This document shows positions 1 to 64,000 of a stretch of 64,000 nucleotides of DNA, piece after piece (within the stretch, counting starts at the first letter, position 1; the number at the start of each line of letters is the position of its first letter). Location of the stretch: contig JAIXOF010000012.1 in NCBI GenBank assembly GCA_027486935.1, forward strand, positions 1 through 64,000. Direction: 5' to 3'. Origin of the DNA: Cyanobium sp. C1_MAG_00004. Its GTDB lineage: Bacteria; Cyanobacteriota; Cyanobacteriia; PCC-6307; Cyanobiaceae. The translations under genes were made by a program, and so were the position numbers. The notes beneath the pieces are model-generated. The model was not told where the DNA came from and made no database searches. It saw nothing but the letters and a program-made list of their open reading frames with translations.

Positions 1-1112
1 ATCTGCATCAGCTCCTCATCCCGCAAGGAGGCGAACAACTCGATCCGACGGAGGGTGGCAAAACTTCTGCTTTTAGCCTCAGATTGCTCAGCGGCGATCT
101 GACCGCGATTCGACCCTGGCGTGCGCAGATCGACAATCGGGAAGGGAATGGAATACCCCTCGCGCTTGACGGCGTACCAGATGCGCGTGCTGACATCCGT
201 CGCGACCTCGTAGCGCAACAGAAAATCAGGAACGAAAAAGTGGAGGCTGTAATCGATGCTCGAGCCCCCAAAGCCCTTCAGAAAGGCCCTGGCACGGTCG
301 GGCTGGGGAATGTGCGGATGATGCAGCACTGCACTGGTTAACAGATGGATCGCCCTCGAAGGGGGCATCTCATAGGGCAGCCCGACCTTCACTTCGAGGC
401 CAAAGTCAGTGGGCGAAGGCCGCGAGTAATTGATGATTTTGACCTTGTCAATGGTGGCGTTCGGCAACACAACGTAACGGTCAAAGACATCGTCATACAG
501 GTAGGTACTATTCCAGGAAATATTGTCAACCCGGCCCTGCTGCCCATCGATTTCGACCCAGTCACCGATGACAAACTGCCGCTCAACCTGGACCGTCAAA
601 GCCGAGGAAATGTTCTGCAGCTGCGTCGCCGAACCAGGCCCGACAATGAACGCCAACACCGACAGCACGGCTGCGGTTCCGATGGTGCTCAGCATGCCGC
701 GTTGATAGAGCTCAGCTGTGATCACCGCGAAGGCGATGGCCACAAACAACAGATCCTTGAAAAAACGTGGAGCTGGCGTGCGGTCCTGGCGGGTCAGGGA
801 CAACAGCTGCCAAACAAAGCCGACGCCGATGTCAACGAAGGCCACATACAGACTGAGCAGCGAAATGAGACCCGTCCAGCTCTGCCACTCGCGCGCCACC
901 CCCAGGGCACTGAGGGCACCGCTGACCAGAGCGGCAGCAATGGCGATGCGGAAAAACCGCATGCTGGGGATCAGATGGCTGAGCTTGCGCCGTTTGCGTT
1001 CCCGTTCGCGTTCAAGCGGGATGGACAGCAGCAGCAGCACCAGCAACAGCAACAACGTTGTCGGCTGGCCGAGCAGCTGCAGACTGCCCACCGGTTGCAG
1101 GGCCAGAACCAT
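1..1112 (-). CDS. MscS-family mechanosensitive channel with the beginning of a C-terminal cyclic-nucleotide-binding domain (partial, 3' end outside window)
   Basis: This gene is open at the left edge, so only its first ~370 codons are present. From ATG 1112 the protein has an N-terminal hydrophobic helix rich in Leu, a charged linker (RERERKRRK), three further membrane segments, and then the MscS beta-domain with FVIGDWVEIDGQQG, WNSTYLYDDVF and VVLPNATI. After SNRGQIAAEQSEAKSRSF it continues LRRIELFASLRDEEL, which looks like the opening helix of a Crp-type cyclic-nucleotide-binding domain. That is the architecture of the bacterial cyclic-nucleotide-gated MscS-like (bCNG) group. Expected role: an inner-membrane tension- and/or ligand-gated ion channel. 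It lies 64 bp downstream of the CHAT exoprotein gene on the same strand. Alternative starts are GTG 1151 and TTG 1136; none has a clear ribosome binding site. The cNMP assignment rests on about 15 residues, so it is likely rather than certain. Confidence 0.85.
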   Translation of the reverse strand, partial: MVLALQPVGSLQLLGQPTTLLLLLVLLLLSIPLERERERKRRKLSHLIPSMRFFRIAIAAALVSGALSALGVAREWQSWTGLISLLSLYVAFVDIGVGFVWQLLSLTRQDRTPAPRFFKDLLFVAIAFAVITAELYQRGMLSTIGTAAVLSVLAFIVGPGSATQLQNISSALTVQVERQFVIGDWVEIDGQQGRVDNISWNSTYLYDDVFDRYVVLPNATIDKVKIINYSRPSPTDFGLEVKVGLPYEMPPSRAIHLLTSAVLHHPHIPQPDRARAFLKGFGGSSIDYSLHFFVPDFLLRYEVATDVSTRIWYAVKREGYSIPFPIVDLRTPGSNRGQIAAEQSEAKSRSFATLRRIELFASLRDEELMQ

Positions 1113-1176
1113 TGGGAACAGAACAGAATTAGTCAACGAAGCACCAGGCACTGGATTGGGCGCAGGATTTGGCTGA

Positions 1177-4100
1177 CTACCAGGCAGCCCCCAGCAGTTC
1201 AATGCCAGCCCAGAAATAGGGGTTTTCCAGGCCAGCGGCAACCCGTCGTTGCTGGGTGCCGGTCAGACCGGTGAGCAGGGTCTGACCATCGGGACCCACG
1301 AGCCGGTCGCCATCGAGGCGCACCAGACCGCGGCCAAAGGCCTGACGGGTCAACTGCAAGGCCTCGGCCTTGGGGATACCAGCCTCGAGGTAGCGGTACA
1401 TCTGCACGAAGTAGGCCGAGGTGGCCACATCGTCGACGTACCACAGGGTGCCGACCGCACTGCGGGCCCCGGCCTGCAGTGCCAGCCCGGCAAAGCCCAG
1501 TTCACTGTCGGCATCCCCCAGGGCCGTGCGGCAGGCGCTGAAGCTGATCAGGTCCAGGGCTGCCCCCTGGCGGGCACGGCGCAGCTTGACGAAGTCACTC
1601 AGGGGAATCGGCACCGTGCCCGAATACAAGCGCGAGGCGGCGGGCCCACCTGGCAGAAACTCGGCGTGGGTGGCCACATGCACCCGGCTGTAGCGGGGGT
1701 CGGCGGCCTGCTCCAGCAGGGTGCTGGGGGTGAAGGCCCGGTTCAGGGCCTTGTCTTTGCGATCAGCCTGACCCACCTGCTCCAGCTCGGCGGGCACCAG
1801 CGGCAGGGGCGCGAGGCCATCAAACACCGCCGAACCCGCGGCCAGCAGCCGACCATTGGTCTTCTGGGGCGGATCCATGCTGGTCAGCGCCAGCGACGGC
1901 GTCAATGAAAAGGCGTAGGCGTCACCGAAATAACGGCGACCGTCGTGCAGGGCCGCGAACGGGACTCCCTGCAGACCCCGGTCCGCCGAGATCAGCAGGG
2001 TCGTGATGCCGCGCTGCTGCAGCGCCGACGTGATCGGGGCCACCAGCAGCGCATGCAACCGACGGCTCGCCGAGGCCGGATCGGTTGTGTTGAGCGGCTC
2101 CTGACGCGACAGCTGGGTGTAGAGCTGCTTGAGCAGGGTGGCGAACTCCTTTTTGGAGACCTCGACCCGGCGGCCCTCGACCTCACCGGCCAGGGGCACC
2201 AGCGTCAGGTCGAGGAAAGCATCGGTGTCGGGCCGCACCGTGCCGCCTTTGGCCTCCGAAAAGCGCACATGCAAAACCGCCGGCGTGTAGGCGGCACGGT
2301 TGAAGGCCGGCGGCAACAGGGCCGGCCCGCCCACATCGGAGCGGGCCAGCAGCCCATCAGAGGCCGCCAGCTGCCAACCCGGCTCAGCGCCCGACGGCAG
2401 CCAGGACTGGGGGCCCAGGGCACCACTGCGAACCAGGTTCGTGGCGCCCGACAGGCTCTGTTGCATCTGGGGAACGCTGGGTGCCGACAGTGCACTGCCG
2501 CTGCGCTCGGGCACCAGGTTGCTGAGCGCCTGACGGCCACTCTGCTGGTCGGCCTGTTGACTGGCGACGGCCGCCTGTTGCGCAGGAACGGTGGTGGTCG
2601 GTGGTGCGCCGGCGTTGTTGCCCGTGGCAGCCGCGGGCGTGTTTGCGGAAGCCTGTTGGGAACCTTTGCCCTCATCGGACTTGGCGGACTCGGACTTGGT
2701 GGCATCGGACTTCGCTGTATCCGACTTGGTGGTCTCGGATTTGGTGGCGTCCGGGTTGGTGGAAGAGGAGGTTGATTCAGACGATGTGCTGGATGTTGTT
2801 GCCGACGTCGACGATGTCGAGGATGTCCCGCCTGTTGCGCTGCCGCCACCGGTGGTCGCATTGCTGGTCAGAGAACTGTCAGTCGTCGTGAAAGAGCTCT
2901 CAAGGGAGCTGATCACCGAGACATTGCTACTGCTGATCAGGGTGGTGCCATCACTTGGGAGGGCAGTTGTCGTCACCTGCACATCAGCTGAAGCAGGAGC
3001 ACTGGAACTGCTGGCAGGTACTGCCGCCGTGGTTGACGATTCTTTGCTGGAGTCAGAGGCTGTCGTCGCAACAGCAGTTGACGTTGAAGATGACGAGGAC
3101 GTAGTTGTTGTTCCAGACGAGGGAGTTGTAGCAGTACCAGTTGTTGTCGACACCGAAAAACCTGGGACAACATTGAGACTGGGCGTCAACAATGGATCAA
3201 CCCGACTGGTTGGCACAGTTGCGCCTGGACAGATGTTCGAGCTCCCTCCATCGCATGTGGCAGTAGTTGGCGGAGTCTGATTAACAGTCAGGGTGCCCCC
3301 TGTAACCGTGGTGGCACCGGTATAGGTGTTAGCCCCATTCAAAACAAGAGTACCTGAGCCGGCTTTGGTAAAGCTTCCCGTCCCTGACATCGATCCAGAA
3401 TAAGTTGTCGACGCCCCATTACCGCCTGCTGTAAGCGTGAAGGACCCAAGGGCGATTCCGCCGCCACCTGCGATGGACCCAATCACATCAGAAGCCCCAA
3501 GTTGGTACAAAGCTCCCGTCGACACTGTCAAAGCAGTAGCGTCCGGCAGACTGCCGCCAACAGAAAGCGTTCCTTGATTAATGAAAGTGGAGCCTGTGTA
3601 GCCGTTGGCCCCATTAAGGATCAAGGTGCCAGCTCCGGATTTTGTAAAATTACCGCTTCCATTAATCGCAGAACCAAACGAAACAGTCAAACCTGGATCA
3701 ACCTGCCAAGTACCACCATCAGCTCCCAAAAAGATCTCGCCACCACCCGTACCAAAGCCATTCGATATCGAAGAGCGAAAGACACCACCGTCAATGATCA
3801 GTGTTCGCGAGAGCTGCGTACCATTACCGAAGAAATCAGCGCTGGCATAAGCCAACGTACCTTCAGATATCAACAATGTAGGGCCGATTGTGTTGGCAGC
3901 ATTCAAGGCAAGAAGGCCAGCTCCGAACTTAGAGAGGTCGCCAACTACAAGCACATTGTTACCGGTGTAAGCAGAAAGGTTAATAGGAGCATTGACAACC
4001 GCTTCTGCAGGTCCATCAAAAGACAAGTCGATGGGCCTTCCGTATACCGTGTAAGCGTAATCAAGGGCAATTGCATTGCCGGACGCAGGAGAAAAGACTA

Positions 4101-5814
4101 GCTTGCCCTGATTAACTGTTACGAAAGCAGTTCTGTCCTGAAGCGGAGGAGCTGCATTATTTCCCAACTGCAAACGACCGGTCAAGGTCAGGACGCCCAA
4201 ACCATCTTTTTCGAGATCCATGACGGCACCGTCCAGCTTAATCACTCCTGCAAATGACGTATTGCCTCCTTGGGTGATTGAAATAGTTCCGTTGTTGACA
4301 GAAATAGTTCCCGCCACGGTCGAATGCTGTGTCAACCCCCCAGCATCAGCCTGCAAAAACAGATCCCCACCACCGGAAATGGAAATGCCATTATCCAAGT
4401 AAATATTATTAGCAGCATGGATGGTCAGCGAATTGGCGCCTTGGCATGAAATTTGCGAACCAATTGTGATATCTCCAAAATTCGTCCCTCCCACGCCTGT
4501 AGAAACAATGACATCGGCAAGGCCAAGATTAAACGTCAATGTTGTGACATCAAGGTATGAGCTGCCCCCACTTACTGAAAGCACGATCGGAGGACTTGAA
4601 GCGCTGCCAGTTGTTGTGATGTTGACTGGGTTGCCTGTCCCGCCAATCGTCAGGTCATAGGGATCCAACAACCACACCCCGGTCTTGCCAAAGGGCGCCG
4701 CTGTGGACACCCGTATCCCATCCACTGCCAGCCAGGCTCCCGATGTCTCAATGCGGCCGCCGTCGCCGCCCTGGGGCCCGCCCGTGGCCAACAGGGTGCC
4801 GGCCACAACCGTGGCGCTGGCGGGGTTGGTGATGTCGCTCCAGGCCACCACGGTGCCACCAGCGCCGTTGAGGGTGGCCGAGGCATCCAGCAAGGCGCCG
4901 GAGCCGATCCAGGTGCGCAGCGCCTGGCGCACCGACGGGTCGCTGTTCTGCCAGCTGCCACCCACCTGAATCAGACCCCCGCCTGTGGGGCCGGTGGCCA
5001 GCAGGCTCGAACTGCCATCAACCCACACCTCGTGGCCGGTGAGGGTGATGCTGCCGCCGGTGCCGGTGCTCGACGCTGCCGAGAGGGTGCTGCCCGCCAC
5101 CGACACCAGGCCCGCCGGGTTGTCGACCAACAGGGAGCGGTCCACCGTCAGGCTGACCCCCTGCAGCACGATCTCGGGGTCGGGCGCCATGCCGGCGATC
5201 GCCCGCAGCGCCGGGTCGAGCACCAGATCGGCCGCACCGGTGCGCGGGGTGCCAAACAGCAGGGCCGCCTGCTGGGGGGTGGTGCCGAACACATCAAACC
5301 GCCCCTCGCCGATGCGCTGGCTGGTGGCGGTGCTGAGGGTCAGCTGGGTGGTGTTTACAAACCCCCCCGAGCCGCTGACCGCAATGCCCCCGGGCGACAG
5401 CCAGAACAGGCTGCCGGGGGTGCTCAGGCTGACCGGTTTGTCGATGAAGGTGCCCTGGGGGGCCGTCACCCCCACCACCACGTTGCTGAAACCGCCGTTG
5501 TTGATCTGCACCCCGGTGATCGCGCCGCGGGTGTCAAAGCTGCTGAAGCGATGCAACAGGTTGGCCCCGGCGGCCGTGCCCCCATCGACATTGCACAGAC
5601 CGCTGCTGCAGCTACCACCCACCACCCCGTTGACGGCTGTGTTCAAGCCACCGGCTCCGGTGGCACTGACCTGGGCCAGGGCTGGCGCGCCGAAGCGGGT
5701 TGTGACACCGGCCAGCACCAGGGGCAGGGTCAGCAACGGACCCAGGCGAACGATGTCAAGCCGGCCGATCACGCTCAACCCCTCGTCCTGATCGCTGCAG
5801 ATCAACCACAACAT
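1177..5814 (-). CDS. Secreted two-partner-secretion exoprotein (TpsA-like) with beta-strand repeats and a C-terminal CHAT caspase-like domain
   Basis: About 1545 residues from ATG 5814. The frame stays open further upstream, but this ATG is the first that clears the divergent gene and precedes a signal-like segment (hydrophobic LGPLLTLPLVLAG, cleavage near APALAQ). Residues ~50-250 resemble a filamentous-haemagglutinin TPS secretion domain (LLHRFSSFDTRG, LFWLSPGGIAV). Residues ~375-840 hold beta-helix passenger with autotransporter-associated strand repeats (SGAGTLILNGANGYTGSTF, GSGTLVLNGANTYTGATTV). Residues ~850-1070 are Ser/Thr-rich, including KSD/KSE repeats near 1015-1050. Residues ~1250-1545 form a CHAT domain: His1383 in VHVATHAEF, Cys1428 in ISFSACRTALGD, then AVGTLWYVDD. 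CHAT domains are caspase-like cysteine peptidases. Its TpsB partner is divergent, 57 bp away. DNA for residues ~375-840 is visibly AT-richer than the rest. I infer export to the cell surface; the substrate is unknown. Confidence 0.88.
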   Translation of the reverse strand: MLWLICSDQDEGLSVIGRLDIVRLGPLLTLPLVLAGVTTRFGAPALAQVSATGAGGLNTAVNGVVGGSCSSGLCNVDGGTAAGANLLHRFSSFDTRGAITGVQINNGGFSNVVVGVTAPQGTFIDKPVSLSTPGSLFWLSPGGIAVSGSGGFVNTTQLTLSTATSQRIGEGRFDVFGTTPQQAALLFGTPRTGAADLVLDPALRAIAGMAPDPEIVLQGVSLTVDRSLLVDNPAGLVSVAGSTLSAASSTGTGGSITLTGHEVWVDGSSSLLATGPTGGGLIQVGGSWQNSDPSVRQALRTWIGSGALLDASATLNGAGGTVVAWSDITNPASATVVAGTLLATGGPQGGDGGRIETSGAWLAVDGIRVSTAAPFGKTGVWLLDPYDLTIGGTGNPVNITTTGSASSPPIVLSVSGGSSYLDVTTLTFNLGLADVIVSTGVGGTNFGDITIGSQISCQGANSLTIHAANNIYLDNGISISGGGDLFLQADAGGLTQHSTVAGTISVNNGTISITQGGNTSFAGVIKLDGAVMDLEKDGLGVLTLTGRLQLGNNAAPPLQDRTAFVTVNQGKLVFSPASGNAIALDYAYTVYGRPIDLSFDGPAEAVVNAPINLSAYTGNNVLVVGDLSKFGAGLLALNAANTIGPTLLISEGTLAYASADFFGNGTQLSRTLIIDGGVFRSSISNGFGTGGGEIFLGADGGTWQVDPGLTVSFGSAINGSGNFTKSGAGTLILNGANGYTGSTFINQGTLSVGGSLPDATALTVSTGALYQLGASDVIGSIAGGGGIALGSFTLTAGGNGASTTYSGSMSGTGSFTKAGSGTLVLNGANTYTGATTVTGGTLTVNQTPPTTATCDGGSSNICPGATVPTSRVDPLLTPSLNVVPGFSVSTTTGTATTPSSGTTTTSSSSSTSTAVATTASDSSKESSTTAAVPASSSSAPASADVQVTTTALPSDGTTLISSSNVSVISSLESSFTTTDSSLTSNATTGGGSATGGTSSTSSTSATTSSTSSESTSSSTNPDATKSETTKSDTAKSDATKSESAKSDEGKGSQQASANTPAAATGNNAGAPPTTTVPAQQAAVASQQADQQSGRQALSNLVPERSGSALSAPSVPQMQQSLSGATNLVRSGALGPQSWLPSGAEPGWQLAASDGLLARSDVGGPALLPPAFNRAAYTPAVLHVRFSEAKGGTVRPDTDAFLDLTLVPLAGEVEGRRVEVSKKEFATLLKQLYTQLSRQEPLNTTDPASASRRLHALLVAPITSALQQRGITTLLISADRGLQGVPFAALHDGRRYFGDAYAFSLTPSLALTSMDPPQKTNGRLLAAGSAVFDGLAPLPLVPAELEQVGQADRKDKALNRAFTPSTLLEQAADPRYSRVHVATHAEFLPGGPAASRLYSGTVPIPLSDFVKLRRARQGAALDLISFSACRTALGDADSELGFAGLALQAGARSAVGTLWYVDDVATSAYFVQMYRYLEAGIPKAEALQLTRQAFGRGLVRLDGDRLVGPDGQTLLTGLTGTQQRRVAAGLENPYFWAGIELLGAAW

Positions 5815-5871
5815 TGGGACAGATTCAGGGAAAACACCACACAATGGGGCGAATTCATGTAAACGCCCGGC

Positions 5872-7554
5872 ATGCTTCTGCTGGCCCAGCTGGTGGCCCC
5901 GCCCCTGCAGCGCGGCCCGGTGAGGCTGCCGGAGCAGACCCCGGTGGAAACCCAGCGGCCCGGCCAACCCCAGCCGGACACGCCGATCTTTGGCTTGCCC
6001 GGTTCCCCCCAGACCCCCGCCGGCCAACCCGAAGCGCCCACGCAGCCCGCAGCGCCAGCCGGCCCGATCCCCGCGGTCCAGGGCCAGACCCCTTACAGCC
6101 CTGAGCAGCTGCAGCAGATCCTGGGGCGCTGCGGCCGGCCCACGGCAGCCGCCACCTTGACGGCCTGCGCCGCCGCCTTGACGGCCCGGCTCACCGCTGA
6201 CGGCTACGTCAATTCACGCGTCTACATCGAAGCCACCCCGGCCCCCGGAACCTTGAAGGTGGTGCAGGGCCGCATCGCCGAACTGCGCATCAGCAGCAGT
6301 GATGCGGGCCTGGCCCGGGACATTCGCGGCCGACTGCGGGGGCTGCAGGGGGAGGTGCTGCATCTGCCCAGCTTGGAGCGGCAACTGTTGGCGCTGCGCA
6401 GCATCCCTGGCGTCGGACAGATCAAGGGCAGCCTGGGACGCCTGGGCAGTGACCCCACCGAAGCGATCCTGAACCTGGCGATCGAACCGGTGCCGACACC
6501 CTGGACCGGCGACGTCAGCCTGCGCAATGACGGCAATGCCGGCAGCGGTGAATGGCGGGCCGTCGGCGTGGTGCTCAAGAACAACCTGGCCACCCGCGGC
6601 GACACCTTCCTGGTGTACGGCGAACTGAACGCTGATCAGGACCCTGAGCTGGGCGCCGTGATCACCTCGCTCAGCTACAGCCTTCCCCTCGCCAGCCGGC
6701 TGAACCTCACCTCGTCGTTCGGCTACAGCCGCCGCAATCTGGTGGAGGCCACAGGCGCCGCCCACAACGTCTCCTTCACCCAGTTCCAGGGTCTGGGCCA
6801 ACTGGAGTGGACGCTCAGACAGGACCTCAACCAACGCTGGATGCTGTTCGGCGGCTTCAGCGGCAACAGCTCTTCCAGCTCACTGGCCGGAGCTTCGTTT
6901 CCGCTGCTGGGGGGCAGCCAGGGACCGGTCTCCCAGATCAGCACCGGTTACCTGCGGGCGGGCCTGGCCTATGGCGGCAACCGCGGCCCAGTGAGCTGGG
7001 GCGGCAACCTCTATGGCCTGCAGGGCATTGCCGGGGTCAGCACCAGCGACCAGTTGGCCTCCCTGGCCAGCGTCGGCATCGACCCCGGCCAGTCACGGGC
7101 CCTGGGGGGGCTGCTCAGCGTGGCCTGGGCGCTGACCGATCGGTTGCAGTTCAACGGCCGCGTCGCCGGACAGATCGCCTTCAACGAACTCACCAACGAC
7201 ATGGGCTTTGCCCTGGGCAGCGATGTGGGCCTCAAGGGGCTGCCCGGCACCTTCATCAGCGGCGACAACGGCTACCTATGGGCCACCGAGCTGGCGTACA
7301 CCGTCTGGCGCAACAGCCAGCAGGCGGTGCAGCTGGTGCCGTTCATCGGCTACGGCGGCATCAGCTACCAACGCAGCGGCATCTGGACCAGCGACACGGT
7401 CGGCTCGGGCGGCGGACTGGTGCGCTGGCTCGCCGGTCGACACTGGACCCTCGAGCTGGGCTGGATCACGCCGTTGGACGAAGGCCAACGGGTCTACTGG
7501 AACAGCTGGCTGCTGGGCAGCGGCGTCTACTCCAAGATTCAGTACAGGTTCTGA
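5872..7554 (+). CDS. TpsB outer-membrane transporter (ShlB/FhaC/HecB family)
   Basis: 560 residues. An in-frame TAA at 5860-5862 leaves ATG 5872 as the only possible start, so the N-terminal export signal is short (MLLLAQLVAP) and weak-looking. A Pro/Gln-rich linker follows, then a POTRA region from about residue 75 (YSPEQLQQILGRC, TADGYVNSRVYIE, LKVVQGRIAEL). From about residue 200 come beta-barrel strands with alternating hydrophobic residues, ending in the outer-membrane signature IQYRF with terminal Phe. FhaC-type proteins translocate one dedicated exoprotein through the outer membrane, recognising its TPS domain with their POTRA domains. The divergently transcribed exoprotein at 1177-5814 is the obvious client. 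The cNMP-binding gene starts 8 bp after the stop, so the two are probably co-transcribed. Confidence 0.92.
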   Translation: MLLLAQLVAPPLQRGPVRLPEQTPVETQRPGQPQPDTPIFGLPGSPQTPAGQPEAPTQPAAPAGPIPAVQGQTPYSPEQLQQILGRCGRPTAAATLTACAAALTARLTADGYVNSRVYIEATPAPGTLKVVQGRIAELRISSSDAGLARDIRGRLRGLQGEVLHLPSLERQLLALRSIPGVGQIKGSLGRLGSDPTEAILNLAIEPVPTPWTGDVSLRNDGNAGSGEWRAVGVVLKNNLATRGDTFLVYGELNADQDPELGAVITSLSYSLPLASRLNLTSSFGYSRRNLVEATGAAHNVSFTQFQGLGQLEWTLRQDLNQRWMLFGGFSGNSSSSSLAGASFPLLGGSQGPVSQISTGYLRAGLAYGGNRGPVSWGGNLYGLQGIAGVSTSDQLASLASVGIDPGQSRALGGLLSVAWALTDRLQFNGRVAGQIAFNELTNDMGFALGSDVGLKGLPGTFISGDNGYLWATELAYTVWRNSQQAVQLVPFIGYGGISYQRSGIWTSDTVGSGGGLVRWLAGRHWTLELGWITPLDEGQRVYWNSWLLGSGVYSKIQYRF

Positions 7555-61526: not shown

Positions 61527-61781
61527 ATGGCTCTGGACCTCAACGACCCGGATCTCGAATTCGCCGATCTGGTCACCGCTTATCAGAGCTGGGTGATGGC
61601 TGTGATCAACGACGAAAAACTTGGCGGTGAGGCGATGCTCACCGACGACATCGTCGATGATGCCCTCAACGCCATGCGCTTTCTGCCTGACGTGGTGACC
61701 AGTGCGATCGAAACCACCCTGGCGCGGGTCTATGACGTCGATGCCGATGAACTGGCGGCGCTTCTCTATCCGGAAAGCTGA
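61527..61781 (+). CDS. Small acidic protein
   Basis: 84 residues from ATG 61527. Strongly acidic and helical (DLNDPDLEFADLVTAYQSWV, DEKLGGEAMLTDDIVDDALN, YDVDADELAALLYPES). This balanced, helix-rich composition and frame suggest a genuine protein; no family recognised. Its 3' end overlaps the next gene by 35 bp. Confidence 0.7.
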   Translation: MALDLNDPDLEFADLVTAYQSWVMAVINDEKLGGEAMLTDDIVDDALNAMRFLPDVVTSAIETTLARVYDVDADELAALLYPES

Positions 61782-63027
61782 GGTCCTTGCTGCTGCGTTG
61801 CTGCTGCTGCTGAGCGGCTGCCAGGCGCGCCAGGCCGCCCCCCCTCGGGGCGGCAACGGGCAGGAGGGGTTGGAGGCCGTTCTCTATCTCTATGTCGGGG
61901 TGCGTGACAACACCTTCGACCTCGATGGTTACCGCCGCGATTTCAACCAGACCTTCAGGGTGCTCGAGCAGCAGTTTCGCCAGGTCAATCCCCGCACCCA
62001 ATTCGTGGTGCAGCTGTACCCCGAAAGCAGCCTGCTCAAGGAACTGGCCCACCGCAATGCCAGCGGCCTGGGCCCAGATCTCCTGCTGGTGACCAACCGC
62101 ACGGCCCTGCAGCTGGCACGGGCGGGATTGACCCGTTCGCCCCAGCTGACCCCGGAGCTGCGGCGCGAGCTGGACCCAGCCACCCTGAGCCGGGCCAGCC
62201 TGCACAACCCCAGACGTCTGGCCAGCCTGCCGGTCGCCCAGAGGGCGCAGCTGGCCTGCTTCAACAGCTCACGCCTGCAACAGGTGCCCACGACCCTGCA
62301 GGAGCTGCTGGCGATCAGCGCCAATGGCAACACCGTGGGGCTGGCGCTGGATCCGCCGGGCATGTTCTGGAGTGCGGGCGCCCTGGGAGCCAACGAAGCT
62401 CTGCAGCTGGCCATCGCCCGCCGTCCCCTGAACCGTGACCAGCAGCAGGCGGTGGTGCGCTGGACGCGCTGGTTGCAGGATGCCGCCACCCAACAGAAGG
62501 TGACCTTCTACGGCAACCAGGAGCTGCTGCTCGAAGCCCTGTCCAGCGGACAGCTGGACTGGATCAGTTGCCACAGCACCGATCTGCAGCGGCTGCAACG
62601 CCGGCTGGGCTCGAAACTGGGGGTGGCACCTCTGCCCGATGGGCCCGGCGGCCAGGCCAGCCCGATCAACGAACTGACGGTGATAGCCCTGGGGGTCAAC
62701 TCGAGCGCAAGCCAGCGCCAGGCCGCCGAGGCCTTTGCCCATTTCGCCCTCAACCCGCTGGTGCAGCGCAACATCACCGTCAGCCTGCGGGAGGTGCTGC
62801 CGGTGAACCGGTTTGTCACCGTGCCGGCCGAAAGCTCGATGGTGCTCAAGGCGATGCTGCGGGCCCAGCAGCAGTCGCGGCAGACCGAAACCATCGCAGC
62901 GCTGATCCACCTCAATGACCGGCGGGTTCAGCAGACCCAGGGACTGATCACCCAGTTGGTGTTCGGTGAAAGCACCCCCGAGATCACGGCGCAGCGCCTG
63001 GTCCGCTCCCTGCAGAGCCAACCATGA
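61747..63027 (+). CDS. Extracellular solute-binding lipoprotein
   Basis: 426 residues from ATG 61747 (MNWRRFSIRKAEVLAAALLL). ATG 61741 is an alternative. The lipobox LLSGC gives a lipid-anchored mature protein. The body has the bilobed periplasmic-binding-protein pattern: GPDLLLVTNRTALQLARAG, ALDPPGMFWSAGALGANEAL, SGQLDWISCHSTDLQRL, LGVAPLPDGPGGQASPINEL, TVIALGVNSSASQRQAAEAF. This resembles family-1-type sugar binders. The gene overlaps its upstream neighbour by 35 bp, and the downstream MscS by ATGA, with no ABC permease or ATPase following in the window. Confidence 0.85.
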   Translation: MNWRRFSIRKAEVLAAALLLLLSGCQARQAAPPRGGNGQEGLEAVLYLYVGVRDNTFDLDGYRRDFNQTFRVLEQQFRQVNPRTQFVVQLYPESSLLKELAHRNASGLGPDLLLVTNRTALQLARAGLTRSPQLTPELRRELDPATLSRASLHNPRRLASLPVAQRAQLACFNSSRLQQVPTTLQELLAISANGNTVGLALDPPGMFWSAGALGANEALQLAIARRPLNRDQQQAVVRWTRWLQDAATQQKVTFYGNQELLLEALSSGQLDWISCHSTDLQRLQRRLGSKLGVAPLPDGPGGQASPINELTVIALGVNSSASQRQAAEAFAHFALNPLVQRNITVSLREVLPVNRFVTVPAESSMVLKAMLRAQQQSRQTETIAALIHLNDRRVQQTQGLITQLVFGESTPEITAQRLVRSLQSQP

Positions 63028-64000
63028 ACGCCTGGCTGTTCGAACTGATGGGCTGGCTGGGCTACCTGCAGCGTCCTGCAGTGCTAGTGCAGGTGCTGGG
63101 CGTGGTCGCCGTGACGCTGATCAGCCAGCTGCTCCAGCGGCGCTGGCTGACCCGGTGCCCAAAGCGGCTGCAGGCCACGCTCAAGCTGTGGTTGACGCCC
63201 CTGTTGATCGCCTTGTGGGCGGGCCTGCTCAACGCCACAGCCCAGCTGCAGGGGCTGGTGCTGTTCCTGCTGTGGTGGCGTTGCGGTTGGTCGGTGCTGG
63301 TGTTGCTCCATCCGCTGCTAGGACGGGTGCTGGATCCGGATCAGCGCTACGACCTGGAAACCCGGCTGCTGCGCCCGGTGTTTCTGGTGGCGGGTGCCAT
63401 CGCCCTGATCAATCAGCTGGACACGATCAACGATGTGGCCTCCATTTCCGTTGGCCAGGCCTTCAACGTCGAAATCACGCTGGGCAAGGTGTTCGTTGCC
63501 CTGGCCATCTCGTACCTGGTGATCGTGGGCAGCGGGCTGCCGGCGGGCCTGATGGCCCGGGGCCTGCAACGGCTGCTGGGCATCAGCGACAGCAGCCGCA
63601 AGGCCATGGAACTGATCCTGCGGTACGCCGTGGTCTGCCTGGGGGTTCTGGCGGTGGCCGTGCACCTGGGCATCAATCCGACCGCTGTGATCGCCATCGC
63701 CGGCGGCCTGTCAGTCGGCCTGGGCTTCGGGATCAAAGAGATCTTTTCAAACTTCATCAGCGGCCTGTGGCTGCTGTTCGAGGGGTCGGTGCGGCCGGGC
63801 GAGGTGCTGATGATCGACGGGGATCCCTGCGAAGTGCGGCGGCTGGGTCTACGGGCCACGGTGCTGTGGCGCGACCGGGACAATGCCGAGCTGCTGATTC
63901 CTAACCAATCGTTCTTCACCCAGGACGCGACGACCTACACGGGCAGCGACCGGCTGCGCCGCAGCCAGGTGACGATCGCCGCGGCCCTGCAGCACGACCC
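63024..64000 (+). CDS. MscS-family mechanosensitive channel (partial, runs off right edge)
   Basis: About 325 codons visible, open at the window end. ATG 63024 overlaps the solute-binding gene stop by ATGA. Several N-terminal membrane segments (GVVAVTLISQLLQ, LVLFLLWWRCGWSVLVLLHP, VFVALAISYLVIVGSGLPAG) are followed by the MscS pore helix and beta-domain: LSVGLGFGIKEIFSNFISGL, FEGSVRPGEVLMIDGDPCEV, DNAELLIPNQSFF. The long extra N-terminus makes it an MscK/YbdG-like rather than a minimal MscS. Coupling to a solute-binding protein is unusual. C-terminal half not seen. Confidence 0.92.
   Translation, partial: MNAWLFELMGWLGYLQRPAVLVQVLGVVAVTLISQLLQRRWLTRCPKRLQATLKLWLTPLLIALWAGLLNATAQLQGLVLFLLWWRCGWSVLVLLHPLLGRVLDPDQRYDLETRLLRPVFLVAGAIALINQLDTINDVASISVGQAFNVEITLGKVFVALAISYLVIVGSGLPAGLMARGLQRLLGISDSSRKAMELILRYAVVCLGVLAVAVHLGINPTAVIAIAGGLSVGLGFGIKEIFSNFISGLWLLFEGSVRPGEVLMIDGDPCEVRRLGLRATVLWRDRDNAELLIPNQSFFTQDATTYTGSDRLRRSQVTIAAALQHD

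What the first reader, a model, noticed from the sequence alone, without database searches (positions are those of the whole stretch)
61747..64000. Solute-binding lipoprotein translationally fused in operon to an MscS-type channel
The binding protein overlaps the channel by ATGA and no ABC permease or ATPase is seen. A periplasmic ligand sensor paired with a mechanosensitive channel would be an unusual ligand-modulated osmotic valve. The first 35 bp of the binding-protein gene also overlap the previous gene.
Basis: partly seen in the sequence, partly recalled or inferred. Interest (0 to 1): 0.55.

Follow-up and report, generated by a model that had tools for sequence, protein, structure and literature searches.

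The report
Sugar-binding lipoprotein paired with pressure channel
In many cyanobacteria a sugar-binding-type surface protein is encoded directly in front of a pressure-relief channel and not with the import pump it would normally serve, which suggests a release valve that also senses a dissolved molecule, although this has not been shown in the laboratory.

Summary
A MalE-type solute-binding lipoprotein gene (61747-63027) overlaps an MscS-type channel gene by ATGA (63024 to 64328, read past the window edge). The 3.2 kb that follow hold no ABC permease or ATPase.

The pair is not strain-specific. In 200 genomes of the order, 140 of 141 matches to the binding protein have the channel directly downstream. 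In 386 genomes of the phylum, the channel subfamily occurs in 46 and the binding protein in the same 46 plus one marginal hit; 54 of 54 channel matches have the binding protein directly upstream. Of 79 named pairs, 66 have overlapping ends. The two trees correlate (r = 0.92).

The binding protein has an intact maltose-binding fold. The channel resembles E. coli MscK, a tension- and potassium-gated channel, without its large periplasmic domain. Seven genomes keep the pair but show no MalF/MalG-type sugar permease, so feeding a sugar importer cannot be its general role.

Most likely the lipoprotein is a separate ligand-sensing subunit that sets the tension at which the channel opens. The obligate module is shown; contact, ligand and gating are inferred. 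I found no description of it in the papers searched.

The parts
61747..63027 (+). Solute-binding lipoprotein gene, 426 aa, MalE-type (Pfam SBP_bac_8)
   Evidence: predicted fold pLDDT 92.9, best PDB match GacH 3jzj Z 35.9
61747..61821 (+). Signal peptide with lipobox LSGC; the Cys codon 61819-61821 is the likely lipid-anchored first residue of the mature protein
   Evidence: read from the sequence; strict lipobox pattern in 63 of 80 binding-protein ORFs of named relatives
63024..64000 (+). MscS-type channel gene, 434 aa in all; continues to contig position 64328 beyond the window
   Evidence: model of the L106 relative best matches E. coli MscK 7ux1 Z 15.9 and MscS Z about 15
63024..63027 (+). 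ATGA stop/start overlap of the two genes
   Evidence: NTGA in 62 and TGATG in 4 of 79 named pairs; ATGA in every locus listed except L022
63027..63068 (+). Codons for the N-terminal helix (residues 2-15; motif GWLGYLxRP) proposed to lie on the periplasmic membrane face; candidate docking site (inferred)
   Evidence: model on L106; mean conservation of residues 1-17 0.65 against 0.48 and 0.40 in the next two helices; W11 and R17 invariant in A2
63678..63782 (+). Codons for pore helix TM3 (residues 219-253)
   Evidence: model on L106; mean conservation 0.90
61527..61781 (+). 84-aa conserved gene of unknown function; its last 35 bases overlap the start of the binding-protein gene. A neighbour, not counted as part of the module
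   Evidence: found on the same fetched locus as the pair in 65 of 79 named loci, upstream in some and downstream in others; no Pfam match

Best explanation
The two genes make one machine: an MscS/MscK-type mechanosensitive channel in the inner membrane whose ligand-sensing periplasmic part is a separate, membrane-anchored MalE-type binding protein. By analogy with MscK, where a periplasmic ring joined to the membrane part by an amphipathic helix accompanies force-plus-ligand gating, the lipoprotein would sit on the periplasmic face of the heptamer, probably on the conserved N-terminal helix. Its open or closed state, set by a small polar solute (sugar or compatible solute), would raise or lower the tension needed to open. 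Shown here: obligate conserved pairing, translational coupling, intact predicted fold, channel type, dispensability of a MalF/MalG-type sugar importer. Inferred: contact, site of contact, ligand, direction of the effect.
For: Adjacency in 140 of 141 binding-protein matches in 200 genomes; the exception lies at a contig edge and its genome's channel match lies at the edge of another contig. Phylum: the same 46 of 386 genomes hold both, and 54 of 54 channel matches have the partner directly upstream. Overlapping ends in 66 of 79 named pairs. 27, 6 and 2 genomes of the order hold 2, 3 and 4 paired matches, so copies multiply as pairs. Tree distances r = 0.92 for 78 pairs; the highest of 500 permutations is 0.135. 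Two-lobed MalE-type fold at pLDDT 92.9. The channel's nearest solved relatives by sequence are MscM and MscK and by model MscK, but its 434 residues leave no room for their periplasmic domain. Precedent for dual force and ligand gating: MscK, PMC9653487 (abstract and passages). All 7 genomes of genus g57 that hold the pair lack matches to both MalF- and MalG-type permeases.
Against: No experiment, no modelled complex, no ligand. The predicted channel has only modest confidence (pTM 0.55), so the position of the N-terminal helix is tentative. Tree correlation was not corrected for shared species history. In the order, 95 of 96 genomes with the pair also hold the MalF-type permease, and in three cases (G062, G169, L132) that permease gene lies divergently next to the pair, which hints at a shared solute with an importer. 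The binding protein's cleft was not examined residue by residue.
Confidence: 0.52

Rival explanations
1. The lipoprotein is a structural or assembly subunit of the channel that no longer responds to a ligand, for example a cap or a tether on the periplasmic face.
For: The pairing explains an obligate subunit equally well. The invariant positions of the binding protein include Pro, Gly and two Cys, which may be structural. The binding protein diverges widely: 26-75% identity to the window's protein among the other A3 rows.
Against: The whole two-lobed fold is kept at high confidence with no lost lobe, and three of the invariant residues are tryptophans, which are common in carbohydrate sites (recalled). 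Divergence between paralogous pairs also fits different ligands.
Confidence: 0.2
2. Recapture: the lipoprotein catches compatible solute that leaks through its channel and hands it to a sugar (CUT1) ABC importer encoded elsewhere. That cyanobacteria use an importer to recover leaked osmolyte is recalled, not tested here.
For: The genome has a scattered CUT1 importer: MalF-like L203, MalG-like L202 and a core binding protein L199 that matches the solved structure 6wpm at E=7.4e-168. 95 of 96 pair genomes of the order hold MalF. Divergent neighbourhood of MalF and the pair in G062, G169 and L132.
Against: The importer has its own binding protein with the same distribution (119 and 118 of 200 genomes, differing only in G135), and 23 genomes have the importer without the pair. 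Of 21 pair genomes outside the family, 8 lack a MalF match at 1e-20, and 7 of those also lack a MalG match at 1e-10. Recapture explains neither one binding protein per channel nor the strict coupling.
Confidence: 0.14
3. Co-expression only: two independent osmotic-stress proteins kept in one operon for common regulation and dosage, without physical contact.
For: Both would be useful in osmotic change, and papers link picocyanobacterial MscS gene content to salinity (PMC9361551, PMC7522525, PMC9948718; passages).
Against: Co-expression alone would hardly keep two genes adjacent almost without exception over several families and through paralogous duplication, while the neighbours on either side are not kept.
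Confidence: 0.1

Closest known systems
E. coli MscK (KefA) and MscM
   Same: Closest solved relatives of the channel part: MscM 2.7e-29, MscK 6.3e-27 by sequence; MscK best by model, Z 15.9 with rmsd 17.1 over 375 residues, so a match of parts rather than of one rigid pose. MscK needs external potassium as well as tension (PMC9653487, abstract and passages).
   Different: MscK and MscM carry a large periplasmic domain on the same chain; here that domain is absent and a binding protein is encoded as a separate gene. NCBIfam scores are far below their cut-offs (143.7 of 991 bits).
MalE-type (CUT1, structural cluster D) solute-binding proteins such as MalE, GacH, ChiE (CK_1342)
   Same: Fold (Z 33-36), sequence profile, lipoprotein export signal.
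   Different: No permease or ATPase in the locus; followed by an MscS channel in nearly every case. The genome's ordinary CUT1 binding protein is a different gene, L199.
Prokaryotic ionotropic glutamate receptors (GluR0 of Synechocystis)
   Same: A periplasmic-binding-protein module joined to an ion channel (PMC3483616, passages).
   Different: There the two are one chain and the pore is potassium-channel-like; here they are two genes and the pore is MscS-like.
Binding proteins that report to other membrane receptors (MalE with Tar, ChvE with VirA, LuxP with LuxQ; all recalled)
   Same: A soluble or anchored binding protein signals through a non-ABC membrane partner.
   Different: No channel partner of the MscS type is known to me in that group.

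Membership tests
MscS channel family | Pore helix plus beta domain plus C-terminal domain of MscS | tested here: met
   Pfam PF21088, PF00924 and PF21082 all above cut-off; model Z about 15 to MscS
MscS channel family | Opens under membrane tension | not testable with these tools
   needs patch clamp or osmotic downshock assay
MscK/MscM subfamily | Sequence and membrane part like MscK/MscM | tested here: met
   best solved relatives MscM and MscK; MscK best by model
MscK/MscM subfamily | Large N-terminal periplasmic domain on the same chain | tested here: not met
   the protein has 434 aa; the match starts at residue 135-140 of the query and at residue 814-830 of the full-length MscM and MscK chains
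MscK/MscM subfamily | Score over the NCBIfam equivalog cut-off | tested here: not met
   143.7 of 991 and 124.9 of 809 bits
MalE-type ABC-importer binding protein | MalE fold and family profile | tested here: met
MalE-type ABC-importer binding protein | Encoded with its permease and ATPase | tested here: not met
   none in the locus; a MalF-type gene was seen divergently beside the pair only in G062, G169 and L132
MalE-type ABC-importer binding protein | Feeds an importer encoded elsewhere | tested here: inconclusive
   a CUT1 importer exists in this genome, but 7 genomes keep the pair without MalF or MalG matches
Ligand-binding receptor | The lipoprotein binds a small solute | not testable with these tools
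   needs purified protein
Prokaryotic ionotropic glutamate receptor | Binding domain and potassium-type pore on one chain | tested here: not met
   two genes in different frames, MscS-type pore; in the order, binding-protein and channel matches share a frame in 9 of 140 pairs, and the open frames listed for those matches are mostly 400-660 aa, too short for both

The most novel reading that the evidence does not exclude
A two-gene, ligand-tuned mechanosensitive channel: a MalE-type lipoprotein is the detachable sensory subunit of an MscS-type heptamer, so that the release valve of cyanobacteria answers both to membrane tension and to a specific solute outside the inner membrane. Paralogous pairs in one cell would answer to different solutes.
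Probability: 0.5. Interest if true: 0.82.

Novelty: new variant of a known kind. Interest (0 to 1): 0.64.

Why it matters
Solute-binding proteins are usually read as parts of importers, and MscS channels as simple tension valves. An obligate module of both, widespread in freshwater and marine picocyanobacteria, would be a new way to combine chemical and mechanical sensing. It would supply a small, testable system for how a periplasmic subunit changes mechanosensitive gating (the question raised by MscK), and it would correct annotations that count such binding proteins as nutrient-uptake genes and such channels as stand-alone salinity markers.

Tried and rejected
ABC importer at the locus: rejected after reading to the contig end. 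The ABC genes at about 51-57 kb of the window are exporter-like by my reading of their translations (ABC-2 type and DevBCA-like, names recalled) and are separated from the pair by valS and other genes.

Strain-specific curiosity or annotation accident: rejected.

Fusion of the two genes elsewhere: none noted. Nine of 140 adjacent pairs share a reading frame, but the open frames listed for those matches are mostly too short for both genes; this was judged from the tables, not by reading each locus.

A conserved third partner: gene clustering around 79 named loci gave no constant downstream gene. The clustering was disturbed by overlapping frames in GC-rich DNA, so a small partner could have been missed. 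The 84-aa upstream gene is near the pair in 65 of 79 loci, but on either side.

Plasmid copies: no match in the plasmid collection.

Published description: library searches gave none. Passages only were read in PMC9948718, PMC9361551, PMC7771541, PMC7522525, PMC2874817 (no 'mechanosensitive' or 'MscS' in its main text) and PMC3483616; abstract and passages in PMC9653487; abstract, passages and sections 4 and 6 of PMC8786288, a review of picocyanobacterial binding proteins whose main text has no occurrence of 'mechanosensitive'. Supplements were not available to me, and subscription journals are mostly not held.

G212 gave a marginal binding-protein match (5.7e-19, 750-aa frame) without the channel; it is told as a miss. 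Further unpaired pieces are a short fragment in G038 and pieces of a broken gene in G035.

Full report
Observation. The window is the first 64,000 bases of a 67,550-base contig of a 2.98-Mb genome. Relatives found by sequence are Cyanobium, Synechococcus and Vulcanococcus; the closest channel, 85% identical, is in a MAG named Cyanobacteria bacterium REEB417. The two genes are as described: a 426-aa binding protein with a lipoprotein signal (61747-63027) and an MscS-type channel starting in its stop codon (ATGA, 63024), complete only beyond the window at 64328. The 35-base overlap with the preceding 84-aa gene is also correct for the start at 61747. Pfam gives SBP_bac_8 and all three MS_channel domains. 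The downstream genes are a DUF1400-type protein, an FAD oxidase-like protein and a Nif11 leader peptide; nothing ABC-like follows.

Conservation. In 200 genomes of the order, the binding protein is found in 96. Of its 141 matches (two genes are split into two pieces each), 140 have the channel directly downstream on the same strand; the exception, in G100, starts 38 bases from a contig edge, and G100's channel match starts 10 bases from the edge of another contig. 60, 27, 6 and 2 genomes hold one, two, three and four binding-protein matches with a channel next to them. In 386 genomes drawn across the phylum, the binding-protein profile matches 47 genomes and the channel profile, at 1e-50, 46; all 46 are shared, the remaining one (G212) is a marginal match without the channel, and 54 of 54 channel matches have a binding-protein match directly upstream. 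21 of the 46 genomes lie outside the family, in five other families; the pair's junction was read in their loci. There the genes are close but mostly not overlapping. Among 79 named loci, only L143, whose contig begins inside the channel, shows no binding protein. Of 79 pairs, 62 have a 4-base NTGA overlap and 4 a TGATG overlap. The strict lipobox pattern is present in 63 of 80 binding-protein ORFs; of the other 17, several carry a near-match Cys and some are cut by contig ends.

The two proteins. The binding protein was folded on 56 aligned sequences to pLDDT 92.9, pTM 0.89. It is a complete two-lobed MalE-type protein: GacH Z 35.9, other MalE-type proteins Z 33-35. A profile of the family finds maltodextrin-binding proteins in the PDB. 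Invariant residues include Trp184, Trp218, Trp248, Cys147 and Cys251 of the mature protein. The channel, modelled on the 86%-identical L106 protein with 56 rows, has pLDDT 84.7 and pTM 0.55: an N-terminal helix, four further helices, then the MscS TM1-TM3 core, beta domain and C-terminal domain. Its closest solved relatives by sequence are MscM and MscK, by model MscK. It has no room for their periplasmic domain. The N-terminal helix is better conserved (0.65) than the two helices after it (0.48, 0.40); the pore helix and beta domain are at 0.90. That the helix lies on the periplasmic membrane face is my inference from the model and the MscS topology.

Linked divergence. Patristic distances of binding protein and channel over 78 pairs correlate at r = 0.92; the highest of 500 permutations gives 0.135. 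Shared species history contributes to this and was not removed.

Is it an importer part? This genome has 17 BPD_transp_1 matches. Those classified are nitrate (two), taurine/sulfonate-like, peptide/nickel-type (two), amino-acid-type (L190 and L195), phosphate (two), sulfate (two), a permease with two matches next to an iron- or phosphonate-type binding protein (L198, L200), one PhnE-type (L204), and one CUT1 pair split over two contigs, MalF-like L203 and MalG-like L202. A CUT1 importer therefore exists. A separate core binding protein, L199, is its likely partner: it matches the solved structures 6wpm/6wpn, which PMC8786288 assigns to cluster CK_1342, annotated ChiE (section 6). L199 occurs in 119 and L203 in 118 of 200 genomes, differing only in G135, while the pair occurs in 96; all 96 have L199 and 95 have L203. 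Outside the family the dependence breaks: of 21 genomes with the pair, 8 show no MalF match at 1e-20. When those 8 were searched with MalG, together with G135, G446 and G337, the 7 of genus g57 again showed nothing at 1e-10 and G304 showed one weak match (28% identity). So the pair persists without a recognisable CUT1 importer. Against my reading: in G062, G169 and the named L132 (Cyanobium sp. Morenito 9A2) the MalF gene lies divergently beside the pair, which suggests a shared solute at least there.

Mechanism. MscK needs tension and external potassium; its periplasmic ring is joined to the membrane part by an amphipathic helix and dilates on opening (PMC9653487, abstract and passages). The present channel has a conserved N-terminal helix but lacks that domain, and is made together with an anchored binding protein. 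The simplest reading is a split design: the binding protein takes the place of the periplasmic sensor. Its closed or open state would favour or hinder the flattening that opens the channel. Steps shown: module, coupling, predicted folds, channel type, independence from a CUT1 importer in genus g57. Steps inferred: contact, stoichiometry, ligand, sign of the effect. I put 0.52 on this, 0.20 on a structural subunit without ligand, 0.14 on recapture, 0.10 on co-expression only.

Known or new. The parts are known kinds; the obligate pair was not found in the papers searched. Picocyanobacterial papers count MscS genes as salinity traits, one of them 24 different MscS clusters (PMC9361551, passages), and a review surveys picocyanobacterial binding proteins as importer parts (PMC8786288, abstract, passages, sections 4 and 6). 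Neither mentions the partner in the text I saw. I file the find as a new variant of a known kind.

Limits.

Noticed in passing
window 61527-61781: 84-aa protein without Pfam match, 76-98% identical in the long matches among picocyanobacteria, on the same locus as the pair in 65 of 79 named loci. In L137 it precedes what looks like a methyltransferase frame instead.
   Followed up: partly
L132:5796-6820; G062:C24:88325-90530; G169:C3:136760-138950: A MalF-type sugar permease gene lies divergently next to the pair in these genomes.
   Followed up: partly
L185:2186-16867 (G123): Three pairs within about 15 kb; one pair is followed after about 30 bases by a second, shorter MscS-type channel (L185:5004-6101). 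L186 (G082) has a similar layout.
   Followed up: partly
L199, L202, L203 (G000 contigs C20, C222, C127): A CUT1 sugar importer scattered over three contigs: ChiE-type binding protein, MalG-like and MalF-like permease; binding protein and MalF occur in the same genomes except G135.
   Followed up: partly
G035:C1:2211656-2212835: The binding protein appears broken into three pieces in front of a channel with an open frame: possible decay or sequencing error.
   Followed up: no
window 3-1241 (-) and 1177-6027 (-): A second MscS-type channel at the contig start next to a long surface-type protein whose C-terminus looks like a CHAT domain (recalled, not tested). PMC7522525 describes a genomic-island module with CHAT proteins and a cAMP-regulated MscS (passage).
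   Followed up: no
L005:5492-5752 (contig 66492-66752): Nif11-type leader peptide of a RiPP precursor, about 2.2 kb downstream of the channel.
   Followed up: no
L131, L148: Contigs filed under Bifidobacterium breve and Rhodopirellula MAGs carry the cyanobacterial pair: probable misbinning.
   Followed up: no
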